DNA from: a virus
DNA length: 23,420 nucleotides
IMG/VR virus record: IMGVR_UViG_3300031162_001515
Coordinates: 1-23,420 of that record
Direction: 5' to 3' (one strand)
Shown: piece by piece, positions 606-20,208 of the stretch
Position numbering within the stretch: the first letter of the stretch is position 1
How the letters are laid out: each line of letters starts with the position of its first letter
The notes under the pieces: model-generated
The model's input: only the letters and a program-made list of their open reading frames with translations
Told to the model about the DNA's origin: nothing
Database searches by the model: none
Program-made: the position numbers and the translations under genes

Positions 606-3599
606 CTACCTTAATCTTTCTATCAAGCTTTTAAAGATACTATCATTTGATACCTTAATGTCTTTTTTATAATCCTTATTATCAAGCACCTTACTAACTA
701 CTTGAGATTTTTCCTTAAGCAAATCATTAATGTCAACATCAATTGTATCAACACAAATATATTGTATTATTTGAATGTTGTCATGAGTGGTTGTAGCTCT
801 ATGGATTCTATCTTCAGCTTGTTCCATATCAGCTGGCGACCAGGCGAACCCAAGAAATATAAGTTTAGACGCTTCTGTTAATGTAATTCCAACTCCAGAT
901 GCACCAATCATTCCAGCAAAAAGATTAATACCCTTCTCTTCTTGGAATCTGTCAACTGAAGACTGCTTATCTTCCTGATTCATACTTCCAGTATGCAGAA
1001 CAGAGTGATGCTTATATTCTTTATGAAGAGTTTCTGCTAAGAATTGGTAGTCCGACATCACAACAAGTTTTTCTCCGTTACTTGTAATATCACCCACAGT
1101 ACCATCCTTTAGCATTCTATCAAGCTTAACGCTCCCAGTGAATTGTTTTAGTTTATGAATTTTCTCAAGATAACCCTCTTCTTTCTCTTCCTCAGTGCCA
1201 TCTTCATTAATAACTTTCTTCATCTCTTTAAGAAGCTTATTGTATTCTGACCTCTGAGATGAAGAAAGTTCTATTTCTATTTCAGTATAAGTCTTAGGAG
1301 GAAGCTGCGAAAGAACATCTTTTTTAAGCCTTCTAAGGAAGTATGGCGCTATCCTTGTGAATAATTCCTCTAAATTAGATGCACCACTGTAGTCCCATCC
1401 AAAATTAGTCTCATAAGCAGCGCAGTACCTTAACCCAAAGTCATGAAATGAATTCCACATCTCTGGGTCCATAAAGTTAAGCCCAGAGAAAAATTCCATA
1501 GGTCTTGATTTAATTGCAGTTCCAGACATAAGTATTTTTTTAGCAACAGTATCTCTGAAGGCTCTCTTAATTATTCTTGTCCAATCAGTCTTAACACTTT
1601 TAATTCTATGAAACTCATCAATTACAATCAAATCATAATCATCAGGGTCTAGATGCTGCCCTTCTTTATCCTGAAGGAACACTATACCTTTAACTCTTGA
1701 TTTGAATGAATTTGAGTTTTTGCAGTCTGTACACTTAGTGTGTTTTTTTGTTAAGTCAATAATCTCCATACCACACCTTTGAGAGCCTTTTCCAGGAACA
1801 ATTATATTGCCATGACATTTATGACTGTATTCAAGCTTTATATAAGTCTGTATTGATTCATAGTTGATTATGTGAAACAGAGACTCTTCTTTTTTGTAGT
1901 TAATCTTACCAGTCTTCTTGCTTGGCTTATATTTATAAACATGAGCTTTCTCGTTGCTGAAATCAAGTATCTCTTTTCTCCAGTTCAACTTAAGAGAAGC
2001 TGGACAAACTACAAGTGTCTTTAGTTTGTTCTTGGCTGCATATGTAATTGGAGGAAGTGTATTATGAGTTACAATATAACTATCTGTAAGATAGGTATGG
2101 TCAGAACAAGAAACAGATATACACTGCTGCTCCTCTTTTCCAATATATTCAACTTTTGAAATATATTTAGAAATATAGTTTGATTTTTTTGGAGACCAAA
2201 TATCTGCTTTATCACTTGAATAGAATGGACAAAATGGAGTTTTTATGTTTGCTCTATATTCTGTAGGCTTGTTATCTTTAGACCTATCATAGATGTTAAT
2301 TTTAGCAATTCCACCCAAAGACTGGACTAATTTCACAACTCCCTCTGAAAGCTCTCTTGATGTTGAGTGAAAATGTACTCTATTTTTATGTACACTACCA
2401 TCTGTATCCATAAGTCCTTTTAATAAAGAAATACGTTGCTCAATAGAACCTTTCAAATAAATATCTGGTATGAATTTTTTTCCTGATTTTATATTTATTC
2501 CTAATTTCTTTATCTCTCTAACCACTTCGTTAGCAATATTTTTGTTATCTTTATTTTTAACAACCATATACTGCGGGCAAGACATTTCAGTTCTTTTATT
2601 TAATCTATATCCCTCTGGAAGTGATTCTCTTATTTTTTCTGCTATTTCTGTTTGAAAATCTGGTACAGATATTCCAACAGCACTTTTACCACATAAATAA
2701 CCATCACCTAAAAGGCCTCCAAGCATATATGGGTCTATAAAATAATTTTGTTTTTTATGAAATACTGGTTGAGTAACTGGAATTTCCCATTTAAGAACTG
2801 GCCTCCTTCCGCTCTTAGCTCTATTACTATTGTGATTATAACAAAGCCCTGCATCCATAAGTTCTTTTAAACTTTTTACTGTCCAATCCTTACCTCTCCT
2901 TCTTCTATTAACATCTCGAACTTTCCAAAGATGCTCTGGACCACACTTTGTTGATGTTCCATCATTAAAAAAAACTTTATATGAATCTTTGCACCCTTGT
3001 GGATACACTCCAGTAACAGTCGATATACCTCCGAACCTATCGTGAATCTCTTCTCCTACTTGTATATTCCCCATTTCAACCCATCCATCTGGAGTTGAGA
3101 TTAAGGTATCCAACGCAGCTTGCTTTCCAACTCCTGGTTGGTCTCCAAGAATTGCCTTACCTTCATTTATTTCGAAAAACTTTACAGCTTGCTTCTGGTA
3201 ATCATATGGTGGAATTTTCATGTGATTGAAGTCGCTATCATTAAAAGATAGGTCGGCCTCTTTTAATTTAAGAGCTGCAGATATTCTATTTTGTCTCTCT
3301 ACATAATCTGCCCTAAGCTTATCAAGCTCTTCTGGCAATAGGTTTTCAAACACAAATGGTATTGAATTGTCTACAAGAAAAGAAATCATATTTCCCATCT
3401 GAACTTCTCGAATTATCCTAACCCACTCATCTACAGTCCCGCCATTAACATCAAGAACATTGTCTACCCTATAGCTTGTATGTTCTTTGGGGAGCGTTTT
3501 TATAAAAGCAGTTATTATAGGTAAATAATCATACCTTAACTCGTAATTTGTTCTTAGCTTCCTGACTTTTACTGGGGCTATTTCTTTCTTTTTTGCCAT
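606..3599 (-). CDS. SNF2-family DNA helicase/ATPase interrupted by a class 3 intein
   Basis: The 997-residue precursor gives a 643-residue mature enzyme after splicing. SNF2 (superfamily 2) motifs appear in order: Walker A DQPGVGK at 153-159 completed by T514 after the intein; motif Ia around LVVCPASLKLNW (529-540); motif II DEFH at 661-664; motif III SGTAIK at 692-697; then the second RecA-like domain with VLHTGSM (867-873), motif V GASGVGITLTEAS (899-911) and motif VI QAEDRIHR (927-934). Cys595, Cys609, Cys623 and Cys626 between motifs Ia and II look like an inserted zinc ribbon. Such phage enzymes are double-stranded-DNA translocases that remodel replication or recombination intermediates, a role comparable to T4 UvsW. 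The start overlaps the preceding gene's stop by one base (TAATG), so translation is probably coupled. It is the last gene of a leftward operon headed by a RecB-type nuclease. Confidence 0.92.
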   Translation of the reverse strand: MAKKKEIAPVKVRKLRTNYELRYDYLPIITAFIKTLPKEHTSYRVDNVLDVNGGTVDEWVRIIREVQMGNMISFLVDNSIPFVFENLLPEELDKLRADYVERQNRISAALKLKEADLSFNDSDFNHMKIPPYDYQKQAVKFFEINEGKAILGDQPGVGKQAALDTLISTPDGWVEMGNIQVGEEIHDRFGGISTVTGVYPQGCKDSYKVFFNDGTSTKCGPEHLWKVRDVNRRRRGKDWTVKSLKELMDAGLCYNHNSNRAKSGRRPVLKWEIPVTQPVFHKKQNYFIDPYMLGGLLGDGYLCGKSAVGISVPDFQTEIAEKIRESLPEGYRLNKRTEMSCPQYMVVKNKDNKNIANEVVREIKKLGINIKSGKKFIPDIYLKGSIEQRISLLKGLMDTDGSVHKNRVHFHSTSRELSEGVVKLVQSLGGIAKINIYDRSKDNKPTEYRANIKTPFCPFYSSDKADIWSPKKSNYISKYISKVEYIGKEEQQCISVSCSDHTYLTDSYIVTHNTLPPITYAAKNKLKTLVVCPASLKLNWRKEILDFSNEKAHVYKYKPSKKTGKINYKKEESLFHIINYESIQTYIKLEYSHKCHGNIIVPGKGSQRCGMEIIDLTKKHTKCTDCKNSNSFKSRVKGIVFLQDKEGQHLDPDDYDLIVIDEFHRIKSVKTDWTRIIKRAFRDTVAKKILMSGTAIKSRPMEFFSGLNFMDPEMWNSFHDFGLRYCAAYETNFGWDYSGASNLEELFTRIAPYFLRRLKKDVLSQLPPKTYTEIEIELSSSQRSEYNKLLKEMKKVINEDGTEEEKEEGYLEKIHKLKQFTGSVKLDRMLKDGTVGDITSNGEKLVVMSDYQFLAETLHKEYKHHSVLHTGSMNQEDKQSSVDRFQEEKGINLFAGMIGASGVGITLTEASKLIFLGFAWSPADMEQAEDRIHRATTTHDNIQIIQYICVDTIDVDINDLLKEKSQVVSKVLDNKDYKKDIKVSNDSIFKSLIERLR
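2061..3122 (-). mobile_element. Class 3 intein (Gln1) with LAGLIDADG homing endonuclease
   Basis: Residues 160-513 of the helicase (354 residues) form an intein inserted between Lys159 and Thr514, inside the Walker A GK^T. Block A is QAALDTLISTPDG, which aligns with C-L-A-x-D/G-T of standard inteins and places Gln, not Cys or Ser, at position 1. Block B is GPEHLW (220-225), block F QQCISV (491-496), and block G IVTHN followed by Thr. W225, C493 and T511 match the WCT triplet that defines class 3 inteins, which use the block F Cys as first nucleophile and do not need Cys1. The two LAGLIDADG helices are LGGLLGDGY (293-301) and LLKGLMDTDGS (392-402), so the endonuclease looks intact. Splicing should restore LGDQPGVGKTLPP. 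The codon boundaries were checked directly in the DNA. Confidence 0.9.
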
Positions 3600-6209: not shown

Positions 6210-6707
6210 CTACTTCTTAAGTTTTTTTTCTTTTTCTATTTTTTTATAGGATTTATTGGATTCTTTCAAAATATTATCAGCCTTTTCTTTAAGTGTATCA
6301 AGATTCATTGATGTATGGGCCTTTGTCCTCCATGATTCATGAAGTACATCTCCAAGAATGGTTAGGTGAAATAGAGTTATTCCACGATTTATTTTAAAAA
6401 CCTGATTATCATTATACTCAGCAACATAGCGAATGCCTTTTCCGTCTGGATTGGTCCAGGTTGCCAGAAACCTTGTATCAACTTCTGGGACTTTATTTTT
6501 CTCCTCTTTATCTAATTCTCTTTGGAGATTTCTCATCTTCTTTTTAATTTTATTCTCCACCTCTTGCTTTAAAGCGTTTTCACGAGCCTTAGTGTCCTCT
6601 TCTTCTCTTTGTTTTTCCTGTCTGTCAGCCTCTTTTATAGCCAACATTGCCTCTCTAGCAAGCTCCTCTACGCTCTTCCCAGAGTCTTCATATTCATCTT
6701 CAGCCAT
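6210..6707 (-). CDS. Charged coiled-coil protein, unknown function
   Basis: The protein has 165 residues. Residues 10-75 are a long charged helix, probably coiled coil (EELAREAMLAIKEADRQEKQ and onward). Residues 76-125 form a small globular part (DTRFLATWTNPDGKGIRYVA, then LFHLTILGDVLHESWR). The C-terminus is Lys-rich. Its ATG overlaps the stop of the gp46-like gene by one base (TAATG), so it is translationally coupled and may act with the recombination ATPase. I do not recognise the family. Confidence 0.75.
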   Translation of the reverse strand: MAEDEYEDSGKSVEELAREAMLAIKEADRQEKQREEEDTKARENALKQEVENKIKKKMRNLQRELDKEEKNKVPEVDTRFLATWTNPDGKGIRYVAEYNDNQVFKINRGITLFHLTILGDVLHESWRTKAHTSMNLDTLKEKADNILKESNKSYKKIEKEKKLKK

Positions 6708-9532
6708 TATGTTATTGTAATTTTAGAAATACCAGCCTTAGGGTTGTTGTCAAGAACTTCTCTACTTAAACCACCTGTTACCTTAACAACATCTATAGTA
6801 TGGTCTGAGAAGTCCTTAATTTCATTCCTATGCGTAATTATTAATACATTCTTATACTTATTACGTAAATAATTCAAAATATTTACAACACCCATTGTGA
6901 GTTCATCATCAAGAGTCCCAAATCCTTCATCAATTATCCTAAGAGAAGGCTTTGTCAACCTGCTCATATACCTTAATGCCTCTGTAATTACAATAGATGC
7001 AATAAACTTCTGAGAGCCAGAGGCGGATGATAAAGGGAGAGCATCACACTTGTCTTCACTGAAGAAGAAAGTTTCTACAATATCTCCGTTAGAAAGTATT
7101 TCAAGTTCAATTTTAAAATCAACAACCTCTGAAAGAATAGAGTTAATCTTTGAATTAATTATAGGAAGCTTCTTTCTGATTATTGCAGCAGGAATACCAT
7201 CCCTATGTACAGCCTGCATATAAATGGAATACTTTTTGAATAACTTATCAGAATCCTCTATATCTTTGAGTTTGTCTCCAAAGTTTTCCTTATTGTTTTC
7301 TAACACTTTTAGTTCACCATATGAGGCATTTATAATTTTATCAAGATTAAATACGGACAATTTATATGTTTTCATCAAAGCTGTTTTGTCTTCAATTTTA
7401 TCTTGAGTTTTAGAATTATATTTTACTTTATATTTATTTGCGTCAAACTTAACAATAGCTTCTTTTGCTAGTGCAATAGTTCTCTTATCTGACTCAGCAG
7501 TCTCTCTTTCCTCTTTAAGAGTTTTTGTTTTAGCTTCAACTAATTTATTATGTTCAATAATGTCTTTAGAGCTATTGATTAAGTCTATTTTATCTTGAAG
7601 GAGTTTATTAGAGTCTTTCTTGACTGATATAGATTGCTCCATAATAGACACTCTTTCTTTTGAGTCATCTACCTTTTTGTTATGAGCAATAATATCATCA
7701 TTCTTTTTAATCTCAATTGATTTGTAATCAATTAAATCTTGATTCATCTTAATATCTTCAAGACAAATCTCCTCTTTTTCTGGGTCCGCCTGATGCTCTA
7801 TATGATTACAGGTTGGGCAACTCTTGCCTTGGTATGTTAAAAGTTGATTATTTAAAGTATTGTTCTTAAGCTTAAGGTCTTCTATTTCTTCTGCAAACTT
7901 CGATACGCTCAATTCATTTTTCTTTGGATTGTCTTTAATCCATTTTTTAAAAGTTTCAAAAGTAGCTTCAGATGTAGTTAATAATTTAGTTTCACTGTCC
8001 AATTTTAACTGCATAGACTGAGCGTCTTCTCCTTCTTTAAATGGAAGTTCTTTCTTGAAGTTCTCTGATAACCATTTTTCTACTTTTTCAATATCACCTT
8101 CAATAATTACCACACTCTCCTCAAGTCTGTTAATTTTTTCTTGAGTTTCTTCCTTATTTGTAATTCCAGATTCTTCCACTTTCTCAAGACTCTTGGTAAG
8201 CTCAAGAATTTCATCATTGACATCATTTTGCTTTATTAAAGATATTTCTTTTTCTTCTTCTACAGATTTTAAATCTTTTGTTTTTCCTGTAATTTCAACA
8301 TTAACATCTTTAATTTTATTTTCAATATCAATAGCATTTCCTAAGTCCTTCTGCTTCCTCTTTACATCATTGAAAAATGTTTTCGCATATTCATGCCTTT
8401 CTTTAAAAGGCTCAAGGCCAAGGAATCTACTAATTAAACTATTCTTTGGCTGCTGCTGTTGATTAATATAATCTCCAGAGCCGCCTTGAGCTTGAAGAGA
8501 TGTCTTAGTGAAGTCATCAAAAGTTCCAACAGTATCTTCAACTAGGTGCTGGACTTCTTTTTGTTCAGCCGTTTTTCTGTCAGATACTTTATCTGTCCAT
8601 TTTTCCCCAGACTCATTACCATCCTCATCATATGTTTTTACGAACTTTTCACAGGTTATCTTAAATGTATTTTTACCCCTCTTAGTTGTTATTTGTCTAT
8701 TTATTCTATATTTTTCTCCATTTATAGTAAGAAAAAGTTTCACATATCCAGTATCTGAATCAGTATATATATTCACAAGGTAGCTTGAGGCCCCTTGGCT
8801 ACCTCCAATAATTTCTTTATAAAGACCCCATACGATTGCTTTAATTACATTTGATTTTCCATTAAAGTTTTTACCAAAAATACCTGTAAGACCACCTATT
8901 TTATCAAAATCAATTATTGTCGGCTTCTTATCAAAAGAAAGTATATTACTTACCTCCATTGAATTTATATCCCAGTCATCAATCACATTATACATTGATT
9001 CATCTATCTCAAGAGTTTTATCTACATGCTCTGAAAAATCAATCAACTCTTTCATTAAGCTATCTTCAACATTAAATTCACCATCTTTGATATATTCTCT
9101 AAACAGCTCATCAAAACTTTGTTGCCTATTTTCAACATCTTCATCTGTAGTAGATAAATCTCTTCTCAATTCCTTAAACTCAACTCTAACGCTTTCGCAT
9201 CCATACTTATCTTTAACAAGCCTTTTGATTTGATTCTCTTTTTCTACAGAATAGTTTTCTTCATAGTCTTCCCAAGTAATGTAAACTTTAGTCTTTCTCT
9301 TGTTATTACTAAACTGAATAAACTCAATTCTTTCATCAATATCTTCCCCTCTAGATATATCAATCTTTGCAAATCCATAGTCATTAAGAATAAATTTTCT
9401 CTCATGAGAGTTATCATCAGTGTCCCAAAGAACATATCCTTTATTTATGGACTCCCCGAAATTCTGCTGAATTAAGCTCCCCGCAAAAACTGCTGTAGGT
9501 GATTTTCGTCTTATTTTTATCTTTTTTCCCAT
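6707..9532 (-). CDS. gp46/SbcC/Rad50-like ATPase with a gp47/Mre11 C-terminal half fused to its N-terminus
   Basis: This protein has 941 residues. A Rad50-type ATPase occupies residues about 188-940: Walker A GKNFNGKS (220-227), coiled-coil arms about 390-560 and 585-770, zinc hook CPTC (572-575), signature LSSASGSQKF (834-843), Walker B LRIIDEG (864-870) and H-loop His901. Rad50, SbcC and gp46 normally begin about 30 residues before Walker A; here there are about 185 extra residues. Residues 12-60 (AVFAGSLIQQNFGES, KGYVLWDTDD, NDYGFAKIDI) are what normally follows the phosphoesterase core of SbcD/gp47. Residues about 65-120 look like its capping domain, and 138-180 like its Rad50-binding helices. 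The separate gp47-like gene at 10385 lacks exactly these parts. The predicted role is DNA-end processing in recombination-dependent replication with the 241-residue nuclease chain. Confidence 0.92.
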   Translation of the reverse strand: MGKKIKIRRKSPTAVFAGSLIQQNFGESINKGYVLWDTDDNSHERKFILNDYGFAKIDISRGEDIDERIEFIQFSNNKRKTKVYITWEDYEENYSVEKENQIKRLVKDKYGCESVRVEFKELRRDLSTTDEDVENRQQSFDELFREYIKDGEFNVEDSLMKELIDFSEHVDKTLEIDESMYNVIDDWDINSMEVSNILSFDKKPTIIDFDKIGGLTGIFGKNFNGKSNVIKAIVWGLYKEIIGGSQGASSYLVNIYTDSDTGYVKLFLTINGEKYRINRQITTKRGKNTFKITCEKFVKTYDEDGNESGEKWTDKVSDRKTAEQKEVQHLVEDTVGTFDDFTKTSLQAQGGSGDYINQQQQPKNSLISRFLGLEPFKERHEYAKTFFNDVKRKQKDLGNAIDIENKIKDVNVEITGKTKDLKSVEEEKEISLIKQNDVNDEILELTKSLEKVEESGITNKEETQEKINRLEESVVIIEGDIEKVEKWLSENFKKELPFKEGEDAQSMQLKLDSETKLLTTSEATFETFKKWIKDNPKKNELSVSKFAEEIEDLKLKNNTLNNQLLTYQGKSCPTCNHIEHQADPEKEEICLEDIKMNQDLIDYKSIEIKKNDDIIAHNKKVDDSKERVSIMEQSISVKKDSNKLLQDKIDLINSSKDIIEHNKLVEAKTKTLKEERETAESDKRTIALAKEAIVKFDANKYKVKYNSKTQDKIEDKTALMKTYKLSVFNLDKIINASYGELKVLENNKENFGDKLKDIEDSDKLFKKYSIYMQAVHRDGIPAAIIRKKLPIINSKINSILSEVVDFKIELEILSNGDIVETFFFSEDKCDALPLSSASGSQKFIASIVITEALRYMSRLTKPSLRIIDEGFGTLDDELTMGVVNILNYLRNKYKNVLIITHRNEIKDFSDHTIDVVKVTGGLSREVLDNNPKAGISKITIT

Positions 9533-9584
9533 TTGTATAGTTATTCTAATAATTTTTTACTTATTTAGTTGCTCCAAAATATAA

Positions 9585-10058
9585 TTAAATTACATCTTTA
9601 AAAGCGTCATCATCTTTACTAATAATGTCAAATGAAAATAACGAATAATCTTGAATATACCCTTTACTATTAATACTTCCAGTACCTCTTGAACGTATGA
9701 CAGCTGATTTATTTTCAAACATCTTTTTAACTAATTCTCCATTTGGAGTATCCAGTGTTTCTATAGTGCCAAATAAAACGGGGCTATTGTTATTTTTCCA
9801 ATTTATATAGAGACCTTGTTTTTTTAAAAGTTTTTTAGTCCTTCTTGGTAATCTATATTTTTTAATTTTAATAGAATCAATTTTGTGAGAAGCATTACTT
9901 AATAATGTTACTGATTCACTTGGCATACCTAACTCACCAAGTAAGGGTTTATTCATATTGTTAAATTGGTTAACCATTTTATTTAAAACTTCTGTAGAAT
10001 ATATTCTACCATTCAAATTTTTTTTATTAGCAATAGCTAAACTTGTTTCTATTTTCAT
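9585..10058 (-). CDS. Prohead-protease-like protein, probably lacking the catalytic His
   Basis: This 157-residue protein has the pattern of T4 gp21-type prohead proteases: NKKNLNGRIYSTEVLNKMV (11-29), LLGELGMPSESV (39-50), LLSNASHKID (52-61), VLFGTIETLDTPNGELVKKM (94-113), VIRSRGTGSI (120-129) and DYSLFSFDIIS (137-147). In the family the second block usually reads GELxHP with the catalytic His; here the position is Met45. The Ser before Arg-Gly is kept (Ser123). A basic insert (KKYRLPRRTKKLLKKQ) replaces the usual Trp-rich strand. Short degenerate relatives may be inactive or act as scaffold or decoy proteins. It lies between the two halves of gp47, four bases after the preceding gene, away from any capsid gene in this window. 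Confidence 0.75.
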   Translation of the reverse strand: MKIETSLAIANKKNLNGRIYSTEVLNKMVNQFNNMNKPLLGELGMPSESVTLLSNASHKIDSIKIKKYRLPRRTKKLLKKQGLYINWKNNNSPVLFGTIETLDTPNGELVKKMFENKSAVIRSRGTGSINSKGYIQDYSLFSFDIISKDDDAFKDVI

Positions 10059-10062
10059 AATT

Positions 10063-10374
10063 TTAAATTTCTTCTATTCCAAATCCTATTTTTTCTTTTC
10101 TTATTTTTATTTTTGAATTAAACTCTTCGTTTATGAATTTTTCATTAGATTTAAATCTCTCTTTTCTGGATGAATCTGAATTTTTTATATCATAGTAAAT
10201 ACCTTCTTCATCCTCCCTTGAGTCCCATATACCGCCAAGTTTCTCATTCCCATTTTCATCAACAACAACTTCCAAAGCCATTCCAAGTGGATGTAAAAAC
10301 CTTCTATTTAACTCTTGTAAATACCCTTTCTCACGAAACTCTCTGATATCAATTCTCTTTATTTGTTTTTCCAT
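10063..10374 (-). CDS. Conserved phage protein with IREFREKGYLQELNRRF motif
   Basis: This 103-residue protein has residues 8-60 (IDIREFREKGYLQELNRRF, LHPLGMALEVVVDENG, GGIWDSREDEEGIYYD) that match a conserved small phage protein I know only as uncharacterised, with the pattern GYLQE-x-NRRF-x-HPLGLALEV and then WDxRxDxEG. The C-terminal 40 residues are Lys-rich. It starts 10 bases after the stop of the truncated gp47-like gene and ends four bases before the protease-like gene. No catalytic function is known to me. Confidence 0.8.
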   Translation of the reverse strand: MEKQIKRIDIREFREKGYLQELNRRFLHPLGMALEVVVDENGNEKLGGIWDSREDEEGIYYDIKNSDSSRKERFKSNEKFINEEFNSKIKIRKEKIGFGIEEI

Positions 10375-10384
10375 AGTTTTATAT

Positions 10385-11110
10385 TTATTCTTTTACAATT
10401 TCCCAACCTTCAGCTTCAAAATCTTCAAGCTCATCTTCGTCAATTAATTTATCTTCCCATCTATCAAATGTTTGATACTCATGGATATCACCAAGCATAA
10501 CCATATCAAAATTATTAAATGTACTTAGCTTCATTAAATTATCTCCATGAGCCATCATTCCATTATCATTTCTTGAGCCATACACAGTTCCATGATACAT
10601 TGCAATATACTTTTTTCCTGGCTCCTTTTTTTCTAAAGTTAATATTTCATTATCCTTACAAGAATAAACACCATAAACAAGCTCTTCTCCTATATTGTAG
10701 AATCCGCTGTCTGGAAAATAATACACTGCATTCTTACTGTAGTCTATTTCATCTTTATTATCATTAGTTACAATGAAAGCTTTTTTATCTTCACCTTCTT
10801 CAATCATATTTGCAAGGTGGAATATTGGAGAAATAGCATCTCCCTGTTCCAATTGAGCAAGATTGATATCATGATTACCAAGTATCACATCTGTAGGAGC
10901 TATCTTGGCAAGCTTCAGAAAGAATTCAGACAACAAGTTGAATGAGCCTGGAGACATATTAATTTTATGGTGCACAAGGTCACCAGCAAGATATATTCTA
11001 TCTGGCTTTTGTTTTCTCAAGTCTTCATAGAGTCTATTAAATACTTGTCTATATTCTTCATGTCTTGTTCCAAATCGTATTTGGATGTCCGCTAAGTGGC
11101 AAATCTTCAT
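10385..11110 (-). CDS. gp47/SbcD/Mre11-like nuclease, phosphoesterase domain only
   Basis: This 241-residue protein holds the calcineurin-like phosphoesterase core of Mre11 nucleases: HLADIQ (5-10), LAGDLVHH (41-48), ILGNHD (76-81), MYHGTVYGS (171-179) and MLGDIHEYQ (205-213). It ends about 28 residues after the last motif with an acidic tail (LIDEDELEDFEAEGWEIVKE). Usual SbcD/gp47 proteins are 330-430 residues and continue into YxGSLIQQNFGE, a cap and Rad50-binding helices. Those parts are found at the N-terminus of the gp46-like protein at 6707-9532. The metal-binding position after motif I Asp8 is Gln10, where Mre11 has His. The start codon overlaps a small upstream frame by four bases (ATGA at 11110-11107). 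Confidence 0.9.
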   Translation of the reverse strand: MKICHLADIQIRFGTRHEEYRQVFNRLYEDLRKQKPDRIYLAGDLVHHKINMSPGSFNLLSEFFLKLAKIAPTDVILGNHDINLAQLEQGDAISPIFHLANMIEEGEDKKAFIVTNDNKDEIDYSKNAVYYFPDSGFYNIGEELVYGVYSCKDNEILTLEKKEPGKKYIAMYHGTVYGSRNDNGMMAHGDNLMKLSTFNNFDMVMLGDIHEYQTFDRWEDKLIDEDELEDFEAEGWEIVKE

Positions 11111-13406: not shown

Positions 13407-14501
13407 TTAAACATCTATATTTAAATTAAACGTAATTAGGTTAGTATATGTTTTTTCAATTGGTCTATCTGTTTTTGCAACAGCTATTAACTCATCAACT
13501 ACATTATACAACCCTATCTCTGTAACTAAAATTGGGTCAAACCCATTAGTTCCATTGTCAAACTCTTGTTTATTATAGGTTAAGTTCCAAGTAGGGTTTG
13601 TAGAAAAAACAAATTCAGCTGGGAAGGCAATACAAATAACAGATGTCTTAAAGTTTATATTAATATCTGTAAAAGTAAGTTGAGAAACAGATGTGTCTGC
13701 AAAATAAACACTAGTAGTTCCAGAGTTTTGAGAATTAGTATATAAATCATACCCTAAATCCCATGGAATATTATCTACAACATCTGGATGTGTTAATACA
13801 ACAAGTCCTTTGCTTAAATTAATGAAACCAACTGGTATGTCATAATTATACCCAGCATTTGTTGTTGTAGGGTATATTTCATCTATATAGTCAACAGCTT
13901 TCTTTACATCAGTCCAAGGTCTAGTATCTGTGTTTATGTCTGATGAATCAAGGTCAGAATAAGCATGGGCCTGAGGTCTATTTACAAAAGGGGTCTCATT
14001 CCATGTTGTCCTAGGTAAACTTGTAGTGTTAGTTCCAGTAGTTGTTCCAGTTCTGGGTAAATTTATTTCATCAGAAAACAAAAATGCTATATTATCTCCA
14101 AGCAAGGCTGAGTCTTGAGATTTAGTAAGTTCACCATAAGTAGATGATACAACTGTCTTGGCAGACATAGATGTGCCGCTAAATTGAGGAACAGTAAAAG
14201 TAACACTTCTACCATCTATAATTTCACTATAATAAGATGCGGGTATTGGTGAAATAATAATATTATCAACATTTAACTGTTGAAGTTCTGGATTTTGTAA
14301 AGAAAGTGTAGAGCCTGATTTTAATTTTGAGTACTCATAAGGCAATCTTACTGACGTAAAATAATTAGTCTCCTTACTTAAAAAATCTGTTCTGTCACAC
14401 AATGTAAATGTCAAGCCGCTATCATTTACTATAGAGAAAGATGTTTCTTCTTGTCTTGTTGATATTAAACTACTTATGTCTTTATATGGTATATTGGCCA
14501 T
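13407..14501 (-). CDS. Virion structural protein, tail or fibre type
   Basis: This 364-residue protein is rich in Ser, Thr and Asn with beta-strand periodicity, typical of phage tail and fibre proteins. The C-terminal 42 residues (ILVTEIGLYNVVDELIAVAK, then RPIEK and NLNIDV) match the C-terminus of the 675-residue protein at 15574-17601 (FITEIGILNNNNALVAVGK, PIKK, QLEIDF). The TEIGLY-x-LIAVAK pattern recalls tail-collar fibre proteins. It is the last gene of the leftward structural operon and starts after an A-rich leader with no Shine-Dalgarno sequence. The exact role is unknown. Confidence 0.75.
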   Translation of the reverse strand: MANIPYKDISSLISTRQEETSFSIVNDSGLTFTLCDRTDFLSKETNYFTSVRLPYEYSKLKSGSTLSLQNPELQQLNVDNIIISPIPASYYSEIIDGRSVTFTVPQFSGTSMSAKTVVSSTYGELTKSQDSALLGDNIAFLFSDEINLPRTGTTTGTNTTSLPRTTWNETPFVNRPQAHAYSDLDSSDINTDTRPWTDVKKAVDYIDEIYPTTTNAGYNYDIPVGFINLSKGLVVLTHPDVVDNIPWDLGYDLYTNSQNSGTTSVYFADTSVSQLTFTDININFKTSVICIAFPAEFVFSTNPTWNLTYNKQEFDNGTNGFDPILVTEIGLYNVVDELIAVAKTDRPIEKTYTNLITFNLNIDV

Positions 14502-14513
14502 GTTTTATTTTTT

Positions 14514-15062
14514 TTATAATGTTCTAAGTGGTGTTGTTAATTGTGAACTTACAGAATTCTTACTAAGAAATATCGCTGAAAATTCTACTTTAATCTGAAT
14601 TGCTTGCGAAGTCTGATTAGTATTCTTTCCATATGCTGTGAAAAAAAGATTTTTACGTAAAGTTACAGTTGAAGTTATAGCATCGGTACTACCGTCTTTA
14701 ATCCATTCAAAAAAATCGATTCTATAATCATCTGGGACCCCTGTAATATAATCATAGTAACCATCCTGCATAGAATCGGCTTTTTTTGAAAATGTTACAT
14801 AAAGAATATCGGAAGTTGTTTGAGGGAGCCATATCTTTAAATAATTAGCTCCCTCAGATGTGTTTGTAGTAAGTGGTATAAAAACTTTATTTCCTCCATA
14901 TAAAACTGAATTTAAAGGATTGTTAAAAGAGCCTGTCGGACCATTTGCAATGAAGGGCTCCTGAAAGAGAGTTCCATCATCCAAATTACTTGTTGTAAAC
15001 TTAGCCTTAAAATGTAGTGAATTTTGAGGGGCTGCATTACTATTTCTTATTATTGCTGGCAT
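14514..15062 (-). CDS. Probable virion structural protein, 182 residues
   Basis: I do not recognise a family. The protein is beta-rich with many Ser, Thr, Asn and aromatic residues (YLKIWLPQTTSDILYVTFSK, IQIKVEFSAIFLSK) and has no signal peptide or membrane segment. It lies 12 bases from the gene after it and 14 bases from the gene before it within the structural operon, which is the main argument for a virion role. The leader TAAAATAAAATTATG is A-rich. Confidence 0.65.
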   Translation of the reverse strand: MPAIIRNSNAAPQNSLHFKAKFTTSNLDDGTLFQEPFIANGPTGSFNNPLNSVLYGGNKVFIPLTTNTSEGANYLKIWLPQTTSDILYVTFSKKADSMQDGYYDYITGVPDDYRIDFFEWIKDGSTDAITSTVTLRKNLFFTAYGKNTNQTSQAIQIKVEFSAIFLSKNSVSSQLTTPLRTL

Positions 15063-15076
15063 AATTTTATTTTATT

Positions 15077-15520
15077 TTAAATTGACTTTTTTACATTTAA
15101 AGTAGTTAGCGTATTTAGCTGCTTAGGAAATGGCGGAGGAGTTTCAGTTGATGTTGGTAAAGAGGCTTCTGTAATAGGAAGCGTAGGGTGTGCTCCTGAA
15201 GTTTGTAAATCTGTGAGGTACTCAATATTCACAGGGGCTCCATCATAAAAAAAAGCTACTAAATTTGTTTGTGAGAAATTTGAAGCCGTTTTTAAACATC
15301 CTTCTGATTTTCCTGTAACATCTGGAACATCTCCAGAGCTTAATGATGTAGATGTCTTATAATTTGTATCTATATCAGATAATGTAAACTTCTTTATCTC
15401 AAACAAATCATCTCCATTAGAATTGAATCTTTCATTATTTTTGTTGAACAAATATGTTCTGCCTATATCTGTAAGATAAGCTGTTGCATAGGTTGTTTCT
15501 GCTGAAGGTATATATCCCAT
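15077..15520 (-). CDS. Small virion protein with the LTDxGR N-terminal module
   Basis: This 147-residue protein has residues 1-25 that align without gaps to the start of the 675-residue protein upstream: Tyr3, Thr9-Thr10 and LTDxGR at 16-21 are shared. A second shared block follows (FEIKKFTLSDIDTNY, compare FDKGIFSDREINY). It lacks the long middle and the C-terminal TEIG block of the larger protein, so it looks like a stand-alone N-terminal module. It is probably a tail or baseplate appendage component. Confidence 0.7.
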   Translation of the reverse strand: MGYIPSAETTYATAYLTDIGRTYLFNKNNERFNSNGDDLFEIKKFTLSDIDTNYKTSTSLSSGDVPDVTGKSEGCLKTASNFSQTNLVAFFYDGAPVNIEYLTDLQTSGAHPTLPITEASLPTSTETPPPFPKQLNTLTTLNVKKSI

Positions 15521-15573
15521 TTTGTTTTTTTATTTGTTTTTTATTTTATTATAAATATATTAATTAAAAAAAG
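15521..15573 (-). promoter_or_regulatory. Candidate internal promoter in the structural operon
   Basis: A 53-base AT-only stretch separates the 675- and 147-residue genes. On the minus strand it reads ATATTTATAATAAAAT (ATATTTATAA at 15558-15549), similar to motifs ahead of other leading genes. The other gaps in this operon are only 12-14 bases, so this one is a likely site for an extra promoter. Confidence 0.3.
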
Positions 15574-17601
15574 TTAAAAATCAATCTCTAGCTGGAAAGC
15601 TAAATATCTTGATGGATTCTTTTTAATTGGATATGTAGGCTTTCCAACTGCAACAAGAGCGTTGTTGTTATTTAAAATGCCAATTTCTGTTATGAAAGTA
15701 TCTGAATCTAATATTCCATTAAAACTTGTATTATTAGAGCTATTGTATTTAGAGTCTGGAGCAGCCACTGTCATAATAGATTTATATGTGGTTGCCATTA
15801 TAGACGCTGTTATGTTTCCAAAAAAGAAAGCCTCGCTCCCAAATGTTAACCCATCTAATTCAACACTATTATTATCATAAAATTCACTATCTAAAACATA
15901 GGTAGTTCCGCTGTCATAATCTGGTTGTGAAACTATAAATTGATGTCCTGCAAGATTAAGTGGGTTAATAGTTTTACTACCAGTAGCTCCTGTATAGATA
16001 CCACTACCAGTTACTCCAGAAGAGATTTTCATCCATCCATCAGTCGGGATTGTGTCTAAATCTACAAGGGGGCTAGTTGTTGTGTTAACTTTATTAACTA
16101 ATAACTGAATTTTGTTTGCATTCCAACCACTGCCGCTAAAGGAAGTCATACCAGATTCGTCTCTCAAATAAGGGAAAAATGATGTACTAAAAGAAGCTCT
16201 AAGATGCTGTGGCGCACCAAGACTATCTTCAGCTCCATCAATCCTTTGTATGTATTGACAGGGTAATGTCTTAGGATATCCATATGTTAATCCAGAAGAT
16301 ATAGCTAAATCACTCTCTGCAACATAAGTTACAAAATAAGTATATCCAGTTTCAAGAAGACCAACAGCAGATGGCGATTGCTCTGAACTAGGGGTAGGTG
16401 AAGTAGAAAGGTTTAATTCAGGTAGCGTATAAGACCTGTTTGATTTATATGTTAAAGCAGTGAGTAACTCAGGGTCTGTAATTACAAACATCTTAAGCTT
16501 ATGATAAACTCTACCTACAACTGTATCAGTTGTTGATGCTCCGTCTCTTAAGTCTCTATAGCTAGTTTGAGATACAGCATCAAAAGTTGTAGAACCAGCT
16601 GAGTCTTGCAGTTTTAATCCATATGTAGCAGCTTGACCTGCATTCGCAGGTTCTCTGTGCCACATAACATTTGGAATATCTACGATAACAGATTTCTCAA
16701 CTAATTGTTCTGCATATGTATTTCCAGTAAATTCATTTGTATAGTGGAATATTCCCACTTGTCTTGTCTCATCTCTAAATCCTAGATAATGCTTAGTTCC
16801 ATTATACTGTATAGAACCATATGTTGTATATCCACTTATAGAAGAGTTAGTTCCTTCTACAGAGCTTGTTCTTACAATATTCATATTCCACACCTGAGTA
16901 TTTACAGTTGCGGCTGAACCATAATAAGTTTCAACCCCATTGAATGGGTAAAAGTATGTATTTAAAACCTGAGTAGTTGGAGTTGTTCCAAAGTCTGGAA
17001 CTTTTCTATCCAGAGTTACAATAGATGTCCCTGTATCTGCAGACAAAACTCTATACCAAAGTGTATTTGTAGGGTTTCCAGAAAGAAAAAGGTCATTCGA
17101 ACTATATGTAACCCCGCTACCTTGTATTGGCTGCCATGGGATGTACATAAGATTACCAGCTGTTGGGAAATACGCTGTACCACCACCAGCAACAGTTACA
17201 TTATTTGTTCCGTCTGGAACATATGTAGCATAATCTATTGTGTTTGAACCGAGTATCTCAGATGTGTTTGCTGACCATGAGTCTGTTTCTCCAGCAAAAA
17301 AACCAACAGAGGGAGTGGCTGCTGTTATATTTTGCTTTACTGAACCTATAGTAATAGTAAAAGCTGAAGAGCCATCAAAATTAGTAGGTGGAGAAAATGA
17401 TGGCGCAGAGTCTTTTGGTGATATAACTCTATTACAACACCCTATATCATAAGCTCCTGCCCTATCTATTCCATAATTTATTTCTCTATCAGAAAAAATA
17501 CCTTTATCAAAAGTTAATTGCCCTAATGATAAAAGTCTCCTACCTTCATCGGTAAGCTTTATATTGATGAATGTTGTTGGCTCGTTTGTTAAATAACTCA
17601 T
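15574..17601 (-). CDS. Large virion structural protein, tail or fibre type
   Basis: This 675-residue protein is the first gene of the leftward structural operon. The N-terminus holds the LTDEGRRLLSLGQL motif (16-29) followed by FSDREINYGID, shared with the 147-residue protein downstream. The long middle is Ser/Thr/Gly/Tyr-rich and beta-stranded. The C-terminus (FITEIGILNNNNALVAVGK, PIKK) is shared with the 364-residue protein. It therefore carries both modules that the two shorter proteins have singly. No enzymatic motif is visible. The leader TACGCTGAAATG lacks a Shine-Dalgarno sequence. Confidence 0.8.
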   Translation of the reverse strand: MSYLTNEPTTFINIKLTDEGRRLLSLGQLTFDKGIFSDREINYGIDRAGAYDIGCCNRVISPKDSAPSFSPPTNFDGSSAFTITIGSVKQNITAATPSVGFFAGETDSWSANTSEILGSNTIDYATYVPDGTNNVTVAGGGTAYFPTAGNLMYIPWQPIQGSGVTYSSNDLFLSGNPTNTLWYRVLSADTGTSIVTLDRKVPDFGTTPTTQVLNTYFYPFNGVETYYGSAATVNTQVWNMNIVRTSSVEGTNSSISGYTTYGSIQYNGTKHYLGFRDETRQVGIFHYTNEFTGNTYAEQLVEKSVIVDIPNVMWHREPANAGQAATYGLKLQDSAGSTTFDAVSQTSYRDLRDGASTTDTVVGRVYHKLKMFVITDPELLTALTYKSNRSYTLPELNLSTSPTPSSEQSPSAVGLLETGYTYFVTYVAESDLAISSGLTYGYPKTLPCQYIQRIDGAEDSLGAPQHLRASFSTSFFPYLRDESGMTSFSGSGWNANKIQLLVNKVNTTTSPLVDLDTIPTDGWMKISSGVTGSGIYTGATGSKTINPLNLAGHQFIVSQPDYDSGTTYVLDSEFYDNNSVELDGLTFGSEAFFFGNITASIMATTYKSIMTVAAPDSKYNSSNNTSFNGILDSDTFITEIGILNNNNALVAVGKPTYPIKKNPSRYLAFQLEIDF

Positions 17602-17742
17602 TTCAGCGTATTTTTTTTATATAAATAGAGTGATTAAAATTTATTCAATTCCTATTCTAAAATAAATAGTTTTATAAGAAAATAAATATTTTACATTTAC
17701 ATTCGAAAAGTTTTTCCCTAATATTTATTAAAAACCCATTTA
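17602..17742. promoter_or_regulatory. Divergent late promoter region
   Basis: This 141-base, very AT-rich gap separates the leftward and rightward structural operons. On the minus strand CTATTTATATAAAA (17628-17620 and beyond) lies 18 bases before the 17601 ATG. On the plus strand ATATTTATTA (17721-17730) lies 12 bases before the 17743 ATG, and AATAAATA, one base off the T4 late box TATAAATA, occurs twice between about 17660 and 17690. The exact promoter is not certain. Confidence 0.45.
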
Positions 17743-20208
17743 ATGGCAACGATACCAGCAAATACAGCAAATACCCTTTCTACGGCTTTCAGTCCAGGTG
17801 AAGACATACTTTTTGGAAACACTAGTTCTCAAGCTATATTCACGCATGGTGACTATAAAATGGAAAAAAGTTCAGAACCAGATAATTTAACTGGAACTTC
17901 TGAGAATTTATCTTTCTCCTCTTTTTCTACTCTTGAAAATATGGGGGTTGATGATTTTAATCCTAAAATTTATACATCAGTTCAAAATAACGAACTTAGA
18001 CCAGCGCCATCTGACCCTCATAGTTATAGTTATTTTGGCTCTTTTTATACAGAAGTAGCTCGTTCTATAAATAACATAATCGATACCTTCCCTTATGCAG
18101 CCCTTGCTTTTGATGGCTATAATGGTAATACAGTATATGATTATACTGAAACCACTAATTTAATTACTGGAGAACAAACTTCAAATTTTAAGATACCAGC
18201 AAGTGTAATAACAAATCAGGGTTTTATTTTATTTAATTCAGCATCAACAGTTGGAAACCAATCTAGCTTAATGACTGAAACTAATCAATTTGAAATACAG
18301 TTTAGCGGAGTTTCAAGTGCAAATACTGAATCCTTTGAAATAGATAGTTATTCTTTTACTGGAGGAACTAGCGGGGTTCTTGAATTTACTTTAAAGGGGA
18401 GTCTTAAAAATAGCGTAAACACCTCTGGGTTTACGGCTGGGACCAGTAATTTGCCAATATACATAAGACCTTCAAAGAAAAGAGCTACTGTGTACAATAT
18501 GCAAAAACCAAGACTTGATAAACAACTTTTGGAAGTAGGTCTATTAGATATACCAGATGTAGATGATGAACATAAAAACTTTAGATATAACATACCTTGG
18601 CCAAGAACAATAGATGGATTTAATCCAGATATAACAGGAGATGTTTTTGAAACATATAAAGATAATATACTTCTACTTGCTGGAAACGTTGATGTTGATA
18701 AGACTGATGTCATGATTAAGACTATGATTCCAGATAACTATCTTGACTTTGATACTGATACTCAGATTTATAGAAAACTAACCTCTTCCTATGCGAAGCA
18801 GTTTGATGAAATTAAGCAATTTATTGACAATATTGCTTATGCTCATACTATGAATTATAATAATGAAAATAGCATTCCAGAAAAATTCTTAGTAAAATTC
18901 AGCAACCTTCTTGGGTGGAAGTTATCTAGTTCATTTAGCGAAATAGATTTATTTGAATATCTTGCAGATGATGAAAATCCTGAACAAAATTCTTTTGCTT
19001 ATTATAATGTAGAGCTTTGGAAAAGGATTTTAATAAACATAAACTGGCTTTATAAGAAAAAAGGAACAAGAGATGCTATCCAATTTTTATTTAAACTAAT
19101 GGGGGCCCCAGATTGTCTTATCGAGTTTAATGAGTTTGTATATGATATCAACAAAACAGTGGTTGGGGATATTTCACAAGAATCTGGGAGCGAAGCAGAA
19201 GCTTTAACGGAAACTTCAGAAATAAGTAAGATAAATGAAAGAGGATTTATAAATTACGATGCAAGCAAGTTTATATTCCAAGAGGGTGGAGCTGGCAGGG
19301 GAGATGGGCAAAGCTATATAAATCAATGGAGACCAGAGTTTAATCCACTTAAGAGGGTTGATAACATAAAAGTACAAGTTGGACTTACCGCCTTCACTGG
19401 TAGTGAGAATATAATAAACACAAAAGAAGTACAAATTCAGCTAAATTCAGCACAAGCAGTTGAATGTGACGTTTTTGAATGGTATCAGTTGAGCGGAACT
19501 TGCTGGGTATGGGGAACTCAAGGAAGCCCTACATTTGATGGTAACAATGTTCCATTTGAATATACGATTCCTAATTGTGATTTTGTTAATCCAGACAATA
19601 TAACTGGTATGACTTTTAGTGAGTATATGGAATTTATATATACGTCTAACATAGAGCCTAGGAATAGAAAAACTAATACACAATCACATACTACTTGGGC
19701 CTACCCAGAGCTTAAGAGAATATATATGAACTATTATTTGCTTGCTGAACCAAAATCTAATTCATTAAATATAAAAAAATTAGAATCTTTCCTTGACCTT
19801 ATAGCTATTAATTTCGAAGAATATGTATTACAACTTATTCCTGCAACTACAATTTTAAACGCTGGTAGCATAGTTTATAGAAATACTGTTTTTCATAGAC
19901 AGAGGTTTGTTTATAAAGAAGGAATAAATGATGGTTCTGAATTTAAAAAAGCATTACCCCCAAACTTAAACTCACAAACATATCCAGTTAATGTTAGTGC
20001 TCAAATAAATGATTTCATTAGAGCTGGAGCTAATGTGGTTTCAATAAATTCATCAATATCTGGAGGTGTAGATATGTGTATTAATCCTGCAAATATAACT
20101 ATGACTGTTAATCAAAACAGCCTAAACTCAGTGGTAGATTCATTTGAAGTGACTAATAAAATAGAACCTAGTATAAGTAAAAGTACAATATTTCCAAAAT
20201 CACTATGA
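17743..20208 (+). CDS. Tail or baseplate protein with a phage tail protein I-like region
   Basis: This 821-residue protein is the first gene of the rightward tail operon. Residues about 345-465 carry a helical block (SSYAKQFDEIKQFIDNI, then FLVKFSNLLGWKLS) leading to WLYKKKGTRDAIQFLFKLMG (435-454). The KKGTRDAI-x-LLG pattern is typical of P2 gpI-type tail proteins, which join baseplate and tail fibres. The N-terminal 250 residues are Ser/Thr-rich, and the C-terminal part is beta-rich. Its stop overlaps the next start by four bases (ATGA). The leader CCCATTTAATG has no Shine-Dalgarno sequence. Confidence 0.75.
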   Translation: MATIPANTANTLSTAFSPGEDILFGNTSSQAIFTHGDYKMEKSSEPDNLTGTSENLSFSSFSTLENMGVDDFNPKIYTSVQNNELRPAPSDPHSYSYFGSFYTEVARSINNIIDTFPYAALAFDGYNGNTVYDYTETTNLITGEQTSNFKIPASVITNQGFILFNSASTVGNQSSLMTETNQFEIQFSGVSSANTESFEIDSYSFTGGTSGVLEFTLKGSLKNSVNTSGFTAGTSNLPIYIRPSKKRATVYNMQKPRLDKQLLEVGLLDIPDVDDEHKNFRYNIPWPRTIDGFNPDITGDVFETYKDNILLLAGNVDVDKTDVMIKTMIPDNYLDFDTDTQIYRKLTSSYAKQFDEIKQFIDNIAYAHTMNYNNENSIPEKFLVKFSNLLGWKLSSSFSEIDLFEYLADDENPEQNSFAYYNVELWKRILININWLYKKKGTRDAIQFLFKLMGAPDCLIEFNEFVYDINKTVVGDISQESGSEAEALTETSEISKINERGFINYDASKFIFQEGGAGRGDGQSYINQWRPEFNPLKRVDNIKVQVGLTAFTGSENIINTKEVQIQLNSAQAVECDVFEWYQLSGTCWVWGTQGSPTFDGNNVPFEYTIPNCDFVNPDNITGMTFSEYMEFIYTSNIEPRNRKTNTQSHTTWAYPELKRIYMNYYLLAEPKSNSLNIKKLESFLDLIAINFEEYVLQLIPATTILNAGSIVYRNTVFHRQRFVYKEGINDGSEFKKALPPNLNSQTYPVNVSAQINDFIRAGANVVSINSSISGGVDMCINPANITMTVNQNSLNSVVDSFEVTNKIEPSISKSTIFPKSL

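What the first reader, a model, noticed from the sequence alone, without database searches (positions are those of the whole stretch)
6707..11110. Mre11-Rad50 (gp47-gp46) pair is split and re-fused
The sequence shows a gp47-like gene that ends just after its last phosphoesterase motif (MLGDIHEYQ), and a gp46-like ATPase whose first ~185 residues begin with AVFAGSLIQQNFGES and KGYVLWD, the block that normally continues gp47. The gp47 cap and ATPase-binding region is therefore on the same chain as the ATPase, while the nuclease domain is a separate protein. Two other genes lie between. From family knowledge, gp47 and gp46 are separate whole proteins in T4, SbcD/SbcC and Mre11/Rad50. I know of no described case of this layout. 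It would force one cap per ATPase and leave the nuclease free to dock.
Basis: partly seen in the sequence, partly recalled or inferred. Interest (0 to 1): 0.85.

Follow-up and report, generated by a model that had tools for sequence, protein, structure and literature searches.

The report
Phage Mre11-Rad50 fusion gene, broken
This virus makes a DNA-repair machine (Mre11-Rad50) that its relatives make as one long protein, but here a selfish "homing" gene once jumped into the middle of the gene; the selfish gene has since decayed, and the two halves survive as separate proteins with short added ends that probably hold them together.

Summary
In detail: a 241-aa Mre11/gp47 nuclease half (10385-11110, minus strand) and a 941-aa protein (6707-9532, minus) carrying the Mre11 cap plus Rad50 are separated by two unrelated genes. 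The "split and re-fused" reading is backwards. Close relatives (nuclease 75-87% identical) encode nuclease, cap and Rad50 as one ~1150-aa chain. Such Mre11-Rad50 fusions are published (PMC3175470). The window carries that fusion gene broken at one beta-hairpin turn by an insertion. Other phages broken at the same site hold homing-endonuclease-type genes there. The window keeps only a stop-ridden fossil of that gene's C-terminus (9533-9590) plus a dead prohead-protease copy and a 103-aa gene. The break recurs in several lineages, with at least 7 state changes on a nuclease tree. Two divergent phages share 127 identical bases across the junction. Every broken copy found adds a similar acidic tail (...EL..Y...GW...) to the nuclease half, and nearly all a basic strand to the cap half. 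Both are under purifying selection, so they are probably a docking pair. This is a new variant of the known "genes-in-pieces" kind (Aeh1 nrdA/mobE). Reassembly in trans is inferred, not shown.

The parts
10466..11110 (-). Mre11/SbcD nuclease body, residues 1-215, up to GDIHEYQTF
   Evidence: 75-87% identical to the nuclease part of one-chain fused relatives
10388..10465 (-). Acidic C-terminal tail, residues 216-241 (DRWEDKLIDEDELEDFEAEGWEIVKE), added by the insertion; proposed docking element
   Evidence: Absent from fused relatives; same motif in all split lineages found; pN 0.108 / pS 0.441; net charge -10
10063..10374 (-). 103-aa gene inside the insertion, unknown function (phrog_3954); 68% identical to the first ~100 residues of a 232-aa protein in huge phage LR745206
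9585..10058 (-). 157-aa degenerate second copy of the prohead (head maturation) protease inside the insertion
   Evidence: phrog_207 4.9e-16; GELDHP of the true protease reads GELGMP here; 68% identical gene in the L036 insertion
9533..9590 (-). Fossil of a homing-endonuclease C-terminus (NLIIFWSN*I...) in the spacer
   Evidence: Aligns to HEG residues 269-297 of L036 at the syntenic place; 0 of 2000 shuffles reach the protein-level score, 0 of 400 the syntenic DNA score
9494..9532 (-). Basic N-terminal head of the cap-ATPase half, residues 1-13 (MGKKIKIRRKSPT), added by the insertion
   Evidence: Absent from fused relatives; pN 0.025 / pS 0.566; +6 charge, basic in all split lineages read
8963..9493 (-). 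Mre11 GSLIQQ strand, capping domain and Rad50-binding region, residues 14-190
6707..8962 (-). Rad50/SbcC ATPase with Walker A GKNFNGKS, CxxC zinc hook CPTC and Walker B LRIIDEGFGTLDDE

Best explanation
The locus is a viral one-chain Mre11-Rad50 fusion gene that was broken into two genes by a homing-endonuclease-type insertion. The insertion sits in the beta-hairpin turn between the last nuclease motif (GDIHEYQTF) and the AYAGSLIQQ strand. It brought an acidic C-terminal tail for the nuclease half and a basic N-terminal strand for the cap-ATPase half. In the window the endonuclease has been deleted down to a C-terminal fossil, leaving cargo genes, yet both halves stay open and conserved. The most likely mechanism is that the halves fold separately and reassemble without a peptide bond into a working Mre11-Rad50. 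The tail (strand-helix) and head (strand) would clasp across the broken hairpin and hold the nuclease on the cap. Shown: fusion state of relatives, identical break site, endonuclease-type genes at that site, fossil, horizontal transfer of the insertion, selection on tail and head, single copy in related genomes. Inferred: endonuclease-driven homing as the mechanism of insertion, trans assembly, and the docking role of tail and head.
For: (2) L036, broken at the same site with the same tail and head, has a 299-aa zinc / Vsr- and PvuRts1I-like endonuclease in the gap (PHROG HNH/homing endonuclease 6e-11). L125 and L192 hold relatives of it (48-58% identical) at the same site in very different phages, and L003 (LR756508) and L187 hold a second, TnsA-like endonuclease there. 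(3) The window spacer holds a fossil of the L036-type endonuclease C-terminus: 0/2000 shuffles. L029 holds a chimera of protease fragment and endonuclease C-terminus, an intermediate decay state. (4) Fused and split copies interleave: 10 changes, 7 forced by starred branches. The AU test rejects one clade for the five window-type splits. The L007 cap-ATPase is 96% identical to fused L010/L011 but 85% to split L006. (5) L006 and L008 are identical for 127 bases across the junction although the rest of the gene is 78% identical. (6) Tail and head are under purifying selection in two clades. The tail model finds 34 nuclease halves and no other gene. The tail is acidic in all nine lineages tested, the head net basic in all eight parsed. 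(7) In the model of fused L015 the break falls between strands 213-215 and 221-223. (8) The nuclease half is the only copy in 8 records, up to 484 kb.
Against: No experiment or two-chain structure prediction supports docking. Selection on tail and head is mostly weaker than on the body, and NG86 with saturated dS on 12-25 codons is rough. No co-conversion tract is seen between the window and the other split copies. The endonucleases are identified by weak-to-moderate profile hits, and none has been tested. The charge pattern of the head is weak in L003 and L171. The own record is a 23-kb fragment, so a second intact gene elsewhere in this genome cannot be excluded directly.
Confidence: 0.8

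Rival explanations
1. One reading: separate gp47 and gp46 genes were re-partitioned, the cap of gp47 moving onto gp46.
For: The domain layout taken alone.
Against: Close relatives are one-chain fusions with nuclease and cap contiguous; the break coincides with an endonuclease insertion site and fossil.
Confidence: 0.03
2. The halves are rejoined by splicing (split intein, intron or trans-splicing), so one chain is made after all.
For: Phage genes broken by homing endonucleases often carry introns or split inteins ('fractured genes' literature); one relative (L188) has an intein-like block in its nuclease half and L125 an intein-like start at Walker A.
Against: No Rfam intron in eight loci; 26-aa tail and 13-aa head with no Cys/Ser start or His-Asn end; both conserved as protein and ending in their own stop and start; two further genes between.
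Confidence: 0.04
3. The broken gene is a decaying pseudogene and the two halves are not used.
For: The insertion itself decays.
Against: Both halves are full length in every window-clade split genome with both sides complete, keep Walker A/B and zinc hook, show strong purifying selection (nuclease body pN 0.12, pS 0.70), and the nuclease half is the only copy in the related records.
Confidence: 0.05
4. The gene is broken by homing insertion as above and the halves reassemble through the native Mre11 interfaces alone; tail and head are conserved for another reason (endonuclease target or site tolerance, solubility, translation coupling).
For: The nuclease and cap domains of Mre11 already pack against each other (general knowledge of the family); tail selection is weaker than on the body; translation starts often overlap (L199, L165 group).
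Against: Tail motif is conserved across lineages with different or no insert gene and paired with a basic head.
Confidence: 0.25

Closest known systems
Mre11/Rad50 (SbcD/SbcC) fusion proteins: Mimivirus R555, Bacillus phage 0305phi8-36 and others (PMC3175470)
   Same: Order nuclease, cap/HLH, Rad50; Asp instead of the first His in the last nuclease motif; abundant in aquatic viruses
   Different: Those are unbroken single chains; here the chain is broken inside Mre11 with added tail and head
Aeromonas phage Aeh1 nrdA-a / mobE / nrdA-b, genes in pieces (PMC2988022; the original PNAS 2007 and NAR 2011 papers are known to me but were not readable here)
   Same: A homing endonuclease gene splits an essential enzyme gene at a functional core; halves carry extra ends and, in Aeh1, are reported to make a working enzyme
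   Different: Different target and endonuclease family; here the break recurs in many lineages with one tail/head type and persists after the endonuclease is lost; the Aeh1 tail read here (KKEKMLFKVKKSEVDKFK...) was not shown to be homologous
Fractured genes with split inteins (Dassa et al. 2009, cited in PMC10448857)
   Same: Endonuclease gene between the two halves of a phage gene
   Different: No intein parts here; the added ends are too short and lack splicing residues
T4 gp46/gp47, E. coli SbcCD
   Same: Same domains and presumably same DNA-end processing job
   Different: There nuclease plus cap is one protein and the ATPase another

Membership tests
Mre11-Rad50 fusion family (R555-like) | Nuclease, cap and Rad50 encoded as one chain | tested here: not met
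   Two chains in the window; met in its sisters at 75-87% nuclease identity
Mre11-Rad50 fusion family (R555-like) | All domains present in the order nuclease-cap-ATPase and homologous to the fused proteins | tested here: met
Homing-endonuclease genes-in-pieces | Coding sequence interrupted at a site uninterrupted in close relatives | tested here: met
Homing-endonuclease genes-in-pieces | A homing endonuclease gene in the interruption | tested here: inconclusive
   Intact candidate genes in L036, L125, L192, L003, L187; only a fossil in the window; cleavage not testable
Homing-endonuclease genes-in-pieces | Insertion moves between genomes | tested here: met
   127-b identity across the junction in otherwise 78% identical genes; interleaved tree, AU test
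Homing-endonuclease genes-in-pieces | Halves reassemble into an active enzyme | not testable with these tools
   Only selection and single-copy evidence
Intein or intron interrupted gene | Self-splicing RNA or splicing protein motifs at the junction | tested here: not met
   Rfam none; no intein residues in tail or head
Prohead protease (157-aa gene) | Catalytic His of the ELDHP motif | tested here: not met
   GELGMP in the window, GELGMS in L036, GELDHP in the true protease of the same phage group

The most novel reading that the evidence does not exclude
A mobile split clasp: endonucleases of at least two unrelated families carry with them a small strand-helix / strand module, broken between its parts, that lets the two halves of an essential repair enzyme re-pair in trans. 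It would be a non-splicing counterpart of a split intein, used repeatedly at one site of phage Mre11-Rad50 and kept as a stable two-gene architecture after the selfish gene is gone.
Probability: 0.35. Interest if true: 0.78.

Novelty: new variant of a known kind. Interest (0 to 1): 0.6.

Why it matters
It shows the full life cycle of a selfish insertion in a core phage repair gene: empty site, active-looking endonuclease, decayed endonuclease, cargo replacement, and bare split gene, all still extant and comparable with each other. It makes a general question testable: how can a selfish gene interrupt a catalytic domain without killing its host genome? The recurring tail/head pair is a candidate answer, and possibly a useful protein-assembly tag. 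It also warns annotators that "gp47" and "gp46" in such phages do not break at the usual domain border.

Tried and rejected
Co-conversion signature between window and other split copies: none visible in 60-base windows. Tail against Pfam: no hit; PHROG only phrog_13055 at 0.014. Tail against phage records by tblastn: no match, query short. Tail model against 11,539 ORFs of all loci to find the same tail on other genes: only nuclease halves; next best a NUMOD3 protein in L097 at E 0.25 with IEKYLSDGWIFGR, suggestive of an endonuclease-module origin but not significant. Relatives of the 157-aa gene in viral contigs by pattern: none. DNA-level fossil test on the 53-b spacer alone against the whole endonuclease gene was not significant (67/500); the extended, syntenic and protein-level tests are. 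Own-genome search for a second copy: own record is only the 23-kb window. The ~300-aa gene in the marine split clade (L165 group) has no Pfam or PHROG family; I first read it as a GT9-like glycosyltransferase by eye, which is untested.
Full report
What is there. The window is a 23,420-base virus record. On the minus strand, 10385-11110 encodes 241 aa of Mre11/SbcD nuclease, and 6707-9532 encodes 941 aa whose Rad50 domain begins at residue ~190. Between them are a 103-aa gene and a 157-aa gene.

Is residues 9-190 really the Mre11 cap? Yes. In fused relatives the stretch continues the nuclease in the same reading frame. The AlphaFold model of window residues 1-190 (mean pLDDT 70, cap core 80-92) matches P. 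furiosus Mre11 224-333 with Z 5.9. Many other Mre11/SbcD chains lie in the same register, although a few unrelated folds score as high over a shorter stretch. The whole fused model matches Mre11/SbcD and Rad50 chains.

What the ancestor looked like. Close relatives (nuclease 75-87% identical) and distant ones (LR756501, Microcystis phage Mel-JY01 WWT39521, Tenacibaculum phage pT24 BAV39141) are single chains of 1050-1310 aa. Mre11-Rad50 fusions, including viral ones, were described in 2011 (PMC3175470). The cap sits on the ATPase chain because everything was once one chain. The event here is fission, not re-fusion.

The break. Fused relatives read GDIHEYQTF-RDDETVAYAGSLIQQ. In the window the nuclease half ends GDIHEYQTF-DRWEDKLIDEDELEDFEAEGWEIVKE-stop and the other half starts MGKKIKIRRKSPT-AVFAGSLIQQ. 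In the model of fused L015 this is the turn between strands 213-215 and 221-223.

The invader. L036, with the same tail and head, has in its gap a protease-like gene homologous to the window's 157-aa gene, methyltransferase fragments, and a 299-aa zinc-finger plus Vsr/PvuRts1I-like endonuclease whose end overlaps the start of the ATPase gene. L029 has a deletion chimera of the protease-like gene and the endonuclease C-terminus. The window has lost the endonuclease except for a stop-ridden fossil of its last ~29 codons, exactly at the syntenic place (window 9590-9533: NLIIFWSN*I... against NLIRFWGNEI...). Related endonucleases (48-58% identical) sit at the same site in L125 and L192, whose nuclease halves are only distantly related. 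A second, TnsA-like endonuclease type sits there in LR756508 (L003) and L187. The marine L165 group carries a ~300-aa gene of no known family there. L162 and L199 have nothing between the halves.

Mobility. On a nuclease tree that leaves out the tail, split and fused copies interleave: 10 changes, at least 7 forced by starred branches. The AU test rejects a single clade of the five window-type splits (the group was named after seeing the first tree, so the p-value is indicative). L006 and L008 share 127 identical bases running from the last nuclease codons into the insert, to the end of the L008 contig, while the gene body is 78% identical. The L007 cap-ATPase is 96% identical to fused L010/L011 but 85% to split L006. 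Direction (gain rather than precise loss) follows from the split tips lying within fused groups; it is an inference. The two searches were biased towards one state or the other, so the numbers are not frequencies.

Why the halves are probably used. In eight records carrying split genes, up to 484 kb, the nuclease half is the only copy. Nuclease body, tail, head and cap all show fewer amino-acid than silent changes: window clade tail pN 0.108 / pS 0.441 and head 0.025 / 0.566; marine clade tail 0.217 / 0.588 and head 0.163 / 0.501. A tail profile finds 34 nuclease halves at E < 1e-7 and nothing else. The tail is acidic in all nine lineages tested and the head net basic in all eight that could be parsed, strongly so in most. 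The simplest mechanism is a strand-helix tail that clasps a strand head across the broken hairpin. This docking step is inferred. The precedent is Aeh1 NrdA, split by mobE and reported to be active (PMC2988022).

Alternatives. Splicing: no Rfam intron, no intein residues. Pseudogene: contradicted by selection and single copy. Assembly error: contradicted by independent contigs. Docking through native interfaces alone, with tails conserved for other reasons, remains open.

Novelty. Fusion: known. Genes in pieces by homing endonuclease: known. New here: this target, the recurrence at one codon-scale site with two endonuclease families and other cargo, the conserved tail/head pair, and the persistence after loss of the endonuclease. 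I found no description of it in the papers searched, a library that lacks most subscription journals.

Noticed in passing
L125:3257-8452: In a 362-kb phage contig the same gene appears broken in several places: endonuclease after the nuclease motif, small ORFs and an HNH-type gene inside the cap, and an intein-like start (GGK|CVRADTKV) at Walker A followed by an endonuclease-like ORF.
   Followed up: partly
L188:3597-5231: Nuclease half of 545 aa with an intein-like block (Pfam Intein_splicing, E 0.0014) inside it, plus the usual tail at the end.
   Followed up: partly
L019:5982-9426: Fused gene broken instead in the coiled coil into 619 + 529 aa overlapping ORFs; may be a second fission or a sequencing frameshift.
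   Followed up: no
10063-10374: 103-aa gene is 68% identical to the N-terminal ~100 residues of a 232-aa protein in huge phage LR745206 that lies just upstream of a DnaJ-like gene; the C-terminal part (GrpE-like by eye) is missing here.
   Followed up: partly
9585-10058: Dead second copy of the head maturation protease; a true protease gene exists elsewhere in the related 101-kb contig (G003:79726-80223). It may have travelled with the endonuclease from the head-gene region.
   Followed up: partly
11081-11090: Nuclease motif I reads D-x-Q (LADIQIRF) in the window and its close fused relatives instead of the canonical D-x-H; the last motif reads GDIH instead of GHxH.
   Followed up: no
606-3599: 997-aa protein matches both terminase large subunit families (residues 148-514) and a phage DNA helicase family (505-981) in PHROGs.
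   Followed up: no
13407-21866: Five large ORFs (364, 182, 675, 821, 553 aa) with no convincing PHROG family.
   Followed up: no
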